Source: Nodosilinea sp. E11
GTDB taxonomy: Bacteria; Cyanobacteriota; Cyanobacteriia; Phormidesmidales; Phormidesmidaceae
Length of the DNA stretch: 64,000 nt
NCBI RefSeq assembly: GCF_032813545.1
Contig: NZ_CP136520.1
Span: forward strand, 3,280,001-3,344,000
Direction of reading: 5' to 3'
A program made the translations under genes and the position numbers. Shown here piece by piece: positions 27,272-59,163 of the stretch. Each line of letters begins with the position of its first letter. Positions within the stretch are counted from its first letter, which is position 1. A model generated the notes under the pieces. That model did not search any database. It saw only the letters and a program-made list of their open reading frames with translations, and was not told where the DNA came from.

Positions 27272-27422
27272 GTCTGGGGCCGGCGATGCCTGCTGCGTAT
27301 CAATCAGGGCTGACCTAAACCGGTCTAACAACCCTTGCCAACTTTAAATTTTGTTGCTTTTGGCTGTGGCCTGGGTAGATTAAGGTTACCCATTTGCTTG
27401 CTGCCCAAATCTCCGCTTCACT

Positions 27423-27890
27423 ATGAACACCGCTTTAATAGAGTCTATTAAGCAGTCTGACGGACGCTACCTCAGCGATGCTGAACTGCGGCCCTTGGCT
27501 CAGTTTGTAGCTTCCTTCGACTCGCGCTATGCAACCTACACTTACCTTAAAGATAACGGCGAAACCTTGGTGCTCAACGCGCTGCGCCGGTTGATGTCGA
27601 CCCAGCACCGCCAGGTGGTGCAAGAGCATGGGAGCAAATGTCAGCGCGACATGACCTATACCCTAGAGTGCATTGCCAAAGCCATCTTGCTCGATGACCC
27701 AAGCGGGTTTATGGAAGAGTACGTGGTGTGGATGCAAAACATTACCCGTGCCCTGCACAAAGAATCCTCTGCCATTGACTCCTATCGCAGCCTTCAGACA
27801 GAACTTACCGATGCTCTGGCTCCAGAAGCGGCCCAGCTGGTCAACGGCTACCTTGAAAAGCTCGTCACTGCTTTTGCCGATGGCATGTAA
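27423..27890 (+). CDS. Orphan phycobiliprotein-like (globin-fold) protein
   Basis: 155 residues with the helical pattern of the phycobilisome family (RYLSDAELRPLAQFVASFDSR at 15-35, then NALRRLM). Residues 73-81 read CQRDMTYTL, matching the chromophore-site pattern Cys-x-Arg-Asp-x-x-Tyr-x-Leu of allophycocyanin subunits, so a bilin could be bound at Cys73. The C-terminal half (DSYRSLQTELTDAL, LEKLVTAF) is more divergent. No phycobilisome, linker or bilin-lyase genes are nearby. It could be a core-associated minor subunit or a regulator such as a degradation factor. Confidence 0.75.
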   Translation: MNTALIESIKQSDGRYLSDAELRPLAQFVASFDSRYATYTYLKDNGETLVLNALRRLMSTQHRQVVQEHGSKCQRDMTYTLECIAKAILLDDPSGFMEEYVVWMQNITRALHKESSAIDSYRSLQTELTDALAPEAAQLVNGYLEKLVTAFADGM

Positions 27891-27903
27891 ACCTTACTCA
27901 ACC

Positions 27904-27935
27904 CAGCCCTAGCAATAACTTCATGCTCAGGGCTG
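27904..27935. terminator. Possible terminator hairpin after phycobiliprotein-like gene
   Basis: CAGCCCT (27904-27910) pairs with AGGGCTG (27929-27935), extended inwards by AGCA/TGCT. It lies 14 bp past the stop codon. There is no T-run, so support is moderate. Confidence 0.4.
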
Positions 27936-27996
27936 ATGCTCGCCTAGGTTGGCTGGGCAGACTATAGGGTGCTGGTGCACTTAATCATCTGAGCCT

Positions 27997-28518
27997 ATGA
28001 GTTTTTGTCGTAGTGCCTACCCCCTAGACTCTGTGAGGTTAGATCCCTTGACTGACGGAACCGCCGCTAGGGCTTATTTGATCGGGCTATCTACCTTTCA
28101 GCAGCAGCCCTTGCTGGGTAGTTATCAGCAGGGGCTACTGTGCTTAAACGACTGTGGGTTGATCGTGGCCGATGAATGGGTGCGCTCAGCCGCTAGCCGC
28201 AAAGGTATTACCCTTGACGCCTGGGTGATCACCCCTACCAGTCTCAGCGGAATTGTTTTTCTCCAAGGGGCTAACCCCATCGGTATAGGGGTTTCAGGCC
28301 CATTGGCAAGTCAAAAACCTTGGCTGCTGTCGTCTTTCATCGCCGGATTTAAAGCTGCCGCCGCCAAGCGCATCAACCTCTGCCGCAACCATCTAGGGCA
28401 ATCGGTATGGCAGCGCAACTACGATGAAAGGCTGATTTCTGACAAAACTCAGCTGGCTAACCTTCGCAATCAGCTGCAAGGCACCGCTGGCCAAGTTTTA
28501 GATATTGGCCACGACTAA
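27997..28518 (+). CDS. Transposase-derived (REP-associated Y1-like) protein lacking the HUH motif
   Basis: 173 residues. The layout follows REP-associated tyrosine transposases: LNDCGLIVADEWVRSA (about 49-64), LDAWVITPTSLSGIVFL (about 73-89), LSSFIAGFKAAAAKRIN, and VWQRNYDERLI. In active members the second block reads about MPNHLHGIV. Here both metal-binding His of the HUH motif are Ser (TSLS) while the catalytic-region Tyr in QRNYDE remains. It cannot be a normal transposase and is probably a domesticated DNA- or RNA-binding protein. The frame is intact and flanking inverted repeats are not evident. Confidence 0.7.
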   Translation: MSFCRSAYPLDSVRLDPLTDGTAARAYLIGLSTFQQQPLLGSYQQGLLCLNDCGLIVADEWVRSAASRKGITLDAWVITPTSLSGIVFLQGANPIGIGVSGPLASQKPWLLSSFIAGFKAAAAKRINLCRNHLGQSVWQRNYDERLISDKTQLANLRNQLQGTAGQVLDIGHD

Positions 28519-28635
28519 ACGGCTGATCGCTAGAGTATGGGTACAGTACGGCTCAACCCTCGGCTTCTCCGTTGCGCTAGCGGCATGACCGGTAATCTGG
28601 GATAGCAACCAGTTCTGGACGGCTTTCAAGGTCTT

Positions 28636-28739
28636 ATACCCAATCCTGGTTGGTTACCCCCGACTTGGCAGGGTAAATGCCCTTTTCCCCTTCAGTTTGA
28701 CCGTTTGAGAACCGGGCTGATGCTATCCAGATTTGGTAT
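28636..28739 (+). repeat. MITE-like repeat, copy B
   Basis: A 104-bp member of the family with ATACCAAATCC-type ends. The left end is ATACCCAATCC and the right end GATTTGGTAT. The middle carries the shared TACCCCC and GTTTGACCGTTTG blocks. It lies between the transposase-like gene and the YqeY gene. Confidence 0.7.
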
Positions 28740-29197
28740 CAGCCTGCCAGCTTGGCTTTGACCAGGGCCTGCACCTTGCCACCATCGGCACGGCCTTTAA
28801 GCTGTTGCATCGCAGGTCCCATGACCTTGCCCATGTCTTTGGCTGATGCAGCTCCAGTTTTGGCAATCAGCTCGTCGATGATCGCTTCTACCTCGGTATC
28901 GCTGAGCTGCTGGGGCAAATATTCAGCAATAATCTCTAGTTCCTGGGCTTCTTGGGCTGCCAGGTCTTCTCGCCCCGCCTTTTGATATTGCTCAATCGAG
29001 TCTTTGCGCTGTTTGGCCAGCTGGGTCAAGACCTCTAGCTCTTGCTCGACGGTCAGGGCATCTTGTCCGCTGGGGCGCACTAGGGTCTCGCGGTCGAGAA
29101 TCACTTTTTTGATGCTGCGTACCGTCTCTAGGCGTACTTTGTCTTTGGCCTTCATGGCGGTCTTGATGTCGTCGCTGATGCGGTCTTTTAGGCTCAT
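28739..29197 (-). CDS. GatB/YqeY domain-containing protein
   Basis: 152 residues, all-helical and charged. It opens MSLKDRISDDIKTAMKAKDK and contains the family segments LETVRSIKKVILDRE, EYLPQQLSDTEVEAIIDELI and DMGKVMGPAMQQLKGRADG. The domain is shared with the C-terminus of GatB and may bind tRNA. The free-standing YqeY form has no settled function. The length is typical. It ends at the edge of a MITE-like repeat. Confidence 0.92.
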   Translation of the reverse strand: MSLKDRISDDIKTAMKAKDKVRLETVRSIKKVILDRETLVRPSGQDALTVEQELEVLTQLAKQRKDSIEQYQKAGREDLAAQEAQELEIIAEYLPQQLSDTEVEAIIDELIAKTGAASAKDMGKVMGPAMQQLKGRADGGKVQALVKAKLAG

Positions 29198-29332
29198 GGC
29201 AAACTATCCTTGCGCCGATCTCGGTGGCGCGTTGTCGGCTATGTTCCCACTTTAAACCGTTGGCGATCGCAACAGAGTAGGTGGCGTCGCCTTTGCCCCG
29301 TTCTTACCTTCTTAATGGTTAAGGGCGTAATG

Positions 29333-50347: not shown

Positions 50348-50375
50348 GTAGGGGCGTAGCATGCTATGCCCCTAC
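50348..50375. repeat. GTAGGGGCATTGC-type palindrome, second copy
   Basis: GTAGGGGCGTAGC and GCTATGCCCCTAC form a 28-base palindrome with one mismatch, closely similar to 33702-33729 and 59089-59117. It lies between the transpeptidase gene and the Gln-rich protein gene. Confidence 0.65.
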
Positions 50376-59044: not shown

Positions 59045-59163
59045 TACCAAATCCAACCCACAAAAACCCGCTGCGAAACCGATACCTCGTAGGGGCATTG
59101 CACTGCAATGCCCCTACGGTTTGGCCTTTTGGAGACCAGGTTTATGCGATCCGGATTTGGTAT
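59044..59163. repeat. MITE-like repeat, complete copy A
   Basis: A 120-bp element with ends ATACCAAATCC and GGATTTGGTAT. Its two halves are imperfect inverted copies of about 57 bp, meeting at the GTAGGGGCATTGC palindrome (59089-59117). The left end overlaps the last bases of prmC. This is the best-preserved member in the window. Confidence 0.85.

What the first reader, a model, noticed from the sequence alone, without database searches (positions are those of the whole stretch)
27997..28518. Transposase-derived protein that has lost both HUH histidines
The protein follows the REP-associated Y1 transposase layout over nearly its whole length (LNDCGLIVADEW, LDAWVI, GIVFL, AAKRIN, VWQRNY). The metal-binding His-x-His of MPNHLHGIV-type sequences reads TSLS, so both His are Ser. 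The frame is intact and no REP-type palindromes flank it. This points to domestication for a nucleic-acid-binding task without cleavage. The layout and substitutions are seen; the family match is from memory; domestication is inference.
Basis: partly seen in the sequence, partly recalled or inferred. Interest (0 to 1): 0.62.

Follow-up and report, generated by a model that had tools for sequence, protein, structure and literature searches.

The report
Dead transposase kept as working gene
In one family of filamentous cyanobacteria, a DNA-cutting enzyme related to transposases has lost its whole cutting site, yet most species keep a copy whose former DNA-gripping helix is unusually well preserved, which suggests it now binds something instead of cutting it.

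Summary
The ORF at 27997-28518 is real and belongs to the TnpAREP/RAYT (HUH-Y1) superfamily (profile-profile E 5.6e-47 against intact relatives). It lost more than the two histidines: the catalytic Tyr reads Q159 and the third metal ligand Asn reads T163. It is one member of a clade found in 55 of 63 genomes of its family. In the tree the dead rows form one branch (SH-aLRT 98, quick search). Outside the family I found none in the class sample. None of 54 rows keeps the Tyr. The four active-site columns, invariant in 56 intact relatives, are variable in the dead clade. The helix at residues 107-128 is far more conserved (mean entropy 0.49 bits, one row per genus) than in slightly less diverged active relatives of the same family (1.21). 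dN/dS is low (median 0.089; active relatives 0.217). Neighbour genes are conserved. REPs flank 20 of 56 active genes and lie inside 27; for dead genes the counts are 2 and 0 of 54. This is an exapted, non-cleaving protein, not a decaying copy. That it binds structured DNA or RNA is inferred; the target is unknown.

The parts
27997..28518 (+). ORF, 173 aa, catalytically dead TnpAREP-like (HUH-Y1) protein
28240..28248 (+). codons of S82-L83-S84 at the place of the metal-binding His-x-His
   Evidence: column counts
28315..28380 (+). residues 107-128 (KPWLLSSFIAGFKAAAAKRINL): 13 of 22 columns at 0.4 bits or less in the dead clade, 4 of 22 in family active relatives; corresponds to the helix called DNA-binding alpha3 in E. 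coli TnpAREP
   Evidence: PMC8266576 passages; helix 104-130 in a low-confidence model
28408..28422 (+). residues 138-142 WQRNY: W and Q invariant in 56 active relatives; W in 54 and Q in 50 of 54 dead ones
28471..28473 (+). codon of Q159 at the place of the catalytic tyrosine
   Evidence: 4er8 alignment of the active relatives
28483..28485 (+). codon of T163 at the place of the third metal ligand (Asn)
   Evidence: PMC6006769 passages
27951..27979 (+). upstream block (GGCTGGGCAGACTATAGGGTGCTGGTGCA) conserved among same-genus orthologues, less so in L032-L034; perhaps the promoter region
   Evidence: alignment of 19 upstream regions; the sigma-70 consensus scan found no site in 27300-29300

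Best explanation
The gene is a domesticated descendant of a subclass-2.4-like TnpAREP. SHOWN: in the dead clade the nucleophilic Tyr is gone from every row read; the two His and the third metal ligand vary freely. REPs in and beside the gene and the C-terminal W--D motif are gone. Core fold residues stay, and the helix at 107-128 is much more conserved than in active relatives. The gene is kept with conserved neighbours and under strong purifying selection. INFERRED: Tyr was lost once, before the His; the protein cannot cleave or rejoin DNA. It works by binding, most likely gripping a structured nucleic acid (a hairpin of DNA or RNA) with the old hairpin-reading helix. Because that helix is nearly fixed across 14 genera, the ligand is probably one conserved molecule rather than a fast-changing REP family. 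Domestication alone: about 0.93. Domestication plus nucleic-acid binding: the figure below.
For: Homology: hhalign probability 100, E 5.6e-47. Active relatives match TnpAREP 4er8 at E 8.2e-6 and Pfam Y1_Tnp in 23 of 24. Entropies at S82, S84, Q159, T163: 0 bits in 56 active rows; 2.5, 2.36, 3.03, 3.22 in 54 dead rows. Control for divergence: one dead row per genus (14 rows, median identity 0.46) against 16 active rows of the same family (0.52): helix 0.49 against 1.21 bits, other columns 1.73 against 1.31. Tyr: 0 of 54. One branch, support 98. dN/dS median 0.089 in 17 usable of 26 pairs, active 0.217 in 8 of 11. Neighbours: of 55, 28 M48/RimM, 17 Pbs/YqeY, 6 WD40, 4 none of these; 54 of 56 active copies have none of the eight neighbours sought, 15 of 16 within the family. 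REPs near the gene: 20 of 56 active, 2 of 54 dead; inside 27 of 56 and 0 of 54. In E. coli TnpAREP helix alpha3 is called DNA-binding and carries K82, which contacts the REP stem bulge (PMC8266576 passages).
Against: No direct evidence of binding. Features said to read GTAG in E. coli (strand beta1, R104 equivalent, C-tail) are mostly lost. The alignment does not place invariant K119 on K82, so residue equivalence in the helix is not established. A fixed helix could equally be a protein-protein surface. The model has pLDDT 40.6, and the Foldseek hits (2f4f E 0.022, 4er8 E 0.085) are weak. The dead profile matches no PDB sequence at E 1 and only 1 of 49 dead members rings Pfam Y1_Tnp. 8 of 63 genomes lack the gene. 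Six orthologues have a Tyr at column 158, next to the catalytic place, though none of them has a His of the pair.
Confidence: 0.58

Rival explanations
1. The helix at 107-128 now serves as a surface for a protein partner or a homodimer, and the protein no longer binds nucleic acid.
For: Columns that vary in active relatives became nearly invariant; GTAG-reading features and the C-terminal motif are lost; the gene has no REPs around it beyond chance.
Against: Invariant K119, R125, N127, W138 and K124 (53 of 54) suit nucleic-acid contact, and the stretch corresponds to the known DNA-binding helix.
Confidence: 0.25
2. It still binds GTAG-tagged REPs and acts as a dominant-negative or REP-occupying protein that silences or organises them.
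For: The window genome has 49 perfect GTAGGGGC palindromes (0 in the reversed control) but no other match to the active profile at E 1e-6. Among genomes without an active copy (profile hit of 200 bits or more), carriers have more REPs than non-carriers: 35 against 8, one-sided p 0.04.
Against: 19 of those 35 carriers have at most one such palindrome. Shared descent and genome size are not controlled. The GTAG-reading parts are lost. REPs may be remnants of past activity, and the genome holds two intact, more distant E. coli-like TnpAREP genes.
Confidence: 0.12
3. It is a decaying pseudogene of an old transposase.
For: All catalytic residues are gone.
Against: dN/dS about 0.09; each of the 54 dead rows is read from one open frame (L069 is cut by a contig end, L064 holds unknown residues), and the stops flagged for some are at the ends of the matches; conserved neighbours; newly invariant columns.
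Confidence: 0.02
4. It is still a nuclease using other residues.
For: Six orthologues have a Tyr at 158 and 8 of 54 keep one His.
Against: None of the four site residues is conserved across the clade.
Confidence: 0.03

Closest known systems
TnpAREP / RAYT, subclass 2.4 (Quentin et al. 2018, PMC6006769)
   Same: Core fold residues, W-Q motif, HUH-to-Y layout, variable loop between HUH and helix, cyanobacterial host; its members often carry REPs inside the gene (section 23), as do the active relatives found here
   Different: No HUH pair, no Tyr, no conserved third metal ligand, no REP in the gene, no C-terminal W--D motif; conserved neighbours. The assignment of the active relatives to subclass 2.4 is mine, from motif and REP habit; the paper's own profiles were not run
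E. coli TnpAREP (RayT), PDB 4er8
   Same: Same superfamily; DNA-binding helix and W-Q strand correspond
   Different: E. coli protein cleaves REP ssDNA with Tyr115 and reads GTAG (PMC8266576 passages); the dead clade has lost the Tyr and most GTAG-reading features
IS200/IS605 TnpA (2f4f, 2ec2, 2xm3)
   Same: Same HUH-Y1 fold family (weak matches of the active profile)
   Different: True mobile-element transposase with active site and terminal hairpins (general knowledge and PMC6006769 abstract)

Membership tests
TnpAREP / RAYT (active) | Sequence relation to TnpAREP | tested here: met
   hhalign E 5.6e-47 to active relatives; NF047646 hit in 46 of 49 members at E 0.01; window below the curated cut-off (19.9 against 80)
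TnpAREP / RAYT (active) | HUH pair of histidines | tested here: not met
   S82/S84 in the window; both His in 0 of 54, one His in 8 of 54
TnpAREP / RAYT (active) | Catalytic tyrosine | tested here: not met
   Q159; Tyr in 0 of 54
TnpAREP / RAYT (active) | Third metal ligand Asn (Y---NP) | tested here: not met
   T163; Asn in 2 of 54, L028 and L031
TnpAREP / RAYT (active) | Flanking or internal REP sequences | tested here: not met
   2 of 54 flanked, 0 of 54 internal, against 20 and 27 of 56
TnpAREP / RAYT (active) | ssDNA cleavage and strand transfer | not testable with these tools
   needs biochemistry
TnpAREP / RAYT (active) | Y1 fold in three dimensions | tested here: inconclusive
   pLDDT 40.6; weak Foldseek hits
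Domesticated transposase-derived gene | Kept in the lineage with conserved neighbours, not multiplied | tested here: met
   55 of 63 genomes; no second dead copy among the copies whose motifs I read, lower-scoring matches not all read; contexts
Domesticated transposase-derived gene | Purifying selection | tested here: met
   median dN/dS 0.089 in 17 usable of 26 pairs

The most novel reading that the evidence does not exclude
A family-wide cyanobacterial regulator made from a TnpAREP by deleting its chemistry while hardening its hairpin-gripping helix: a cleavage-free HUH protein that recognises one conserved hairpin RNA or DNA in the cell.
Probability: 0.35. Interest if true: 0.82.

Novelty: new variant of a known kind. 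Interest (0 to 1): 0.62.

Why it matters
TnpAREP is called a domesticated transposase in print (PMC8266576 abstract, listing), but with its catalytic site at work. The large survey of the family took members without HUH and Tyr motifs as probably non-functional and set them aside (PMC6006769 section 8). Here is a clade without a conserved site residue that is under strong selection. It suggests that HUH-Y1 proteins can be exapted for binding alone, and it offers a defined surface (residues 107-128) and 55 orthologues with which to find the ligand.

Tried and rejected
Foldseek on it gave IS200 and TnpAREP chains as three of the first four, the other unrelated, at E 0.02-0.09; I do not rest on it. 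Dead-clade profile against PDB sequences: no match at E 1. Relatives in viral contigs: none of 32 candidate stretches. Rfam on the window: one tRNA only.

Link between dead gene and REP number: suggestive only (p 0.04) and confounded by descent, so not claimed. In that count an 'active copy' means an A3-profile hit of 200 bits or more, taken by hand.

K82 of E. coli as the counterpart of invariant K119: the alignment does not support it, so only the helix as a whole is compared.

Worry that the active set is simply more diverged than the dead set: tested and rejected.

Rows dropped: L008-L014 (same places as, or near copies of, other loci), L018, L110, fragments L085 and L123; 11 further rows in the rooted tree; L024, L063, L046, L069, L078 left out of the 49-row profile; pairs with dS outside 0.1-1.5 or undefined left out of the dN/dS medians. 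Pairs were chosen by hand. An earlier dN/dS run stopped with an error after 11 pairs (whole open frames, omega 0.08-0.44; beside it yqeY 0.03-0.12, the phycobilisome-domain gene 0.10-0.42, the 147-aa gene 0.06-0.22) and was replaced. The first alignment had minus-strand loci unturned and was redone.

Literature: searches. I judged by titles and starts of abstracts; some searches listed 15 of 200, 15 of 49 and 15 of 29 papers. None listed is on a catalytically dead TnpAREP clade. Only the open library was searched; the 2017 paper on domesticated bacterial transposases (DOI recalled) is not held. Of PMC6006769 I saw the abstract, passages and sections 8, 23 and 31; of PMC8266576, passages and the start of the abstract. 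Others: listings only.

Full report
What is there. The window is a stretch of a 6.1-Mb genome (G000:C7:3280001-3344000). Its near relatives by record title are cyanobacteria: Nodosilinea, Shackletoniella, Tildeniella, Leptolyngbya and Phormidium tenue. The ORF at 27997-28518 encodes 173 aa without stops. The search found one copy in its genome at E 1e-3. Pfam gives nothing at E 1; NCBIfam gives REP-associated tyrosine transposase at 19.9 bits against a cut-off of 80.

Family. 57 of 63 genomes of the family have a match. After reading the motifs, matches fall into two sets. One set of 56 rows, 16 from the family and 40 from other families of the class, has His-x-His and Tyr. The other, 54 rows (55 genomes with L018), all in the window's own family, has no Tyr and no His pair: 46 have no His, 3 keep the first and 5 keep the second. 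Eight of 63 genomes have no dead gene that I could find: G012, G035, G038-G041, G049, G060. A profile search found nothing in six of them and only partial matches of 53 bits or less in G012 and G035, which score higher with the active profile. G049 is only 61% complete, G012 83% and G041 87%.

Outside the family. The dead profile was run on 388 genomes of the class, 60 of them of the family by the listing. The best match outside reached 167 bits; dead proteins of full length reach 174-234, three incomplete or divergent dead copies 129-154, and two family active copies 165-168. So the score alone does not separate the sets cleanly. I fetched 42 genes from 40 places outside and read them: 41 have His-x-His and Tyr and one, L123, is a fragment. 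The other outside matches were not read.

Homology. Dead profile (49 rows) against active profile (24 rows): probability 100, E 5.6e-47, 157 columns. The active profile finds 4er8, TnpAREP, at E 8.2e-6, with H-x-H, W-Q and Y-I-x-x-N-P aligned. Numbered along that chain, the window's Q159 lies at Tyr115 and T163 at N119. The roles of these residues are from PMC6006769 and PMC8266576 passages.

Constraint has swapped. In 56 active rows the columns of S82, S84, Q159 and T163 have zero entropy; in 54 dead rows 2.5, 2.36, 3.03 and 3.22 bits. The columns of G30 and S32 in strand 1, Thr and Cys in nearly all active rows, are freed too. In contrast K107, P108, L111, K119, A123, K124, R125, N127 and L128 have at most 0.13 bits in the dead rows; six of these nine have 1 bit or more in active rows, while K119 is invariant in both. 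With one row per genus (14 genera) the four site columns rank 107, 89, 131 and 92 of 138 in conservation, and the ten helix columns printed rank 7 to 26. Divergence does not explain it: the 14 dead rows are a little more diverged (median identity 0.46) than the 16 active rows of the same family (0.52), yet their helix has 0.49 against 1.21 bits, while the other columns have 1.73 against 1.31. Not every helix column is fixed: 13 of 22 are at 0.4 bits or less, against 4 of 22. The W--D motif that follows the Tyr helix in 50 of 56 active rows is in 0 of 54 dead rows.

Descent and selection. In the tree of 110 rows the 56 active rows are one side of a branch, SH-aLRT 96. With five outgroup proteins from the same genome, the 47 dead rows kept are one side of a branch, SH-aLRT 98. 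Both are quick searches without bootstrap; the outgroup has long branches and the rooting is weak. Tyr is absent from all 54, so it probably went first and once, and the His positions later and repeatedly. Nei-Gojobori dN/dS over the domain: median 0.089, range 0.04-0.33, in 17 of 26 dead pairs with usable dS; median 0.217, range 0.12-0.31, in 8 of 11 active pairs. Pairs share branches and were chosen by hand, so the two medians are descriptive. The flanking yqeY is tighter still (0.03-0.12).

Place in the genome. Of 21 same-genus copies, 17 have yqeY downstream, 13 of which also have a phycobilisome-domain gene upstream; three lie beside a WD40-repeat gene and one is on a short stretch near a contig end. 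In most other genera the gene lies after an M48 peptidase and before rimM; a tRNA-Leu(CAA) was found in 20 of the 24 such loci scanned. Counts: 28 M48/RimM, 17 Pbs/YqeY, 6 WD40, 4 none of these, of 55. Of 56 active copies 54 have none of the eight neighbours sought, and of the 16 in the family 15. Flanks were 1.5-2.5 kb or less. In G000 the M48 and tRNA-Leu pair exists elsewhere without the gene beside it, so the gene changed place at least once while being kept.

No REPs. GTAG-tagged hairpins within 400 bases: 20 of 56 active genes, 41 hits against 1.0 in base shuffles; 2 of 54 dead genes, 3 hits against 2.0. REP inside the gene, a known habit of subclass 2.4 (PMC6006769 section 23): 27 of 56 against 0 of 54. 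Yet the window genome holds 49 perfect GTAGGGGC palindromes and no other match to the active profile at E 1e-6; two more distant E. coli-like TnpAREP genes are intact. REP numbers are only loosely related to the dead gene.

Mechanism. The chemistry is gone, the scaffold is kept, and one helix is under new, tight constraint. In E. coli TnpAREP the corresponding helix is the DNA-binding alpha3 (PMC8266576 passages). The most likely function is therefore binding without cleavage to a fixed structured nucleic acid. A protein partner is the main rival. Neither was tested here; the structure model was too poor.

Novelty. Quentin et al. retained 722 of 924 proteins with the complete core and judged those without core motifs probably non-functional (section 8). 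My searches of the open library listed no described dead clade (titles and abstract starts). I file this as a new variant of a known kind.

Noticed in passing
window 27423-27890: A 155-aa phycobilisome-domain protein (Pfam 63 bits), far below the NCBIfam cut-offs of allophycocyanin and phycocyanin, sits upstream; it was found beside the dead gene in 13 of 21 same-genus copies.
   Followed up: partly
window 50348-50375 and 59089-59117: Two GTAGGGGC...GCCCCTAC palindromes (REPs) lie in the window, 21 kb or more from the gene; the genome has 49 although no intact close relative of the REP transposase was found.
   Followed up: partly
L006:1354-1902 (-) and L007:1297-1869 (-): The same genome carries two intact E. 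coli-like TnpAREP genes (D-H-x-H, Y-I/L-H-Y-N-P); L006 matches 4er8 at 8.4e-42.
   Followed up: partly
upstream of the dead gene in L039, L041, L044, L050, L051, L062, L064, L065, L078: A small basic ORF (MAQQLKRWESPRNQGRNHKGRGGSAKQ...) recurs in these nine loci; the one scanned has no Pfam match at 1e-5.
   Followed up: partly
L037, L038, L032, L033, L034, L052: The dead gene lies beside a WD40-repeat gene in three genera; why a single small gene changed place more than once is unknown.
   Followed up: no
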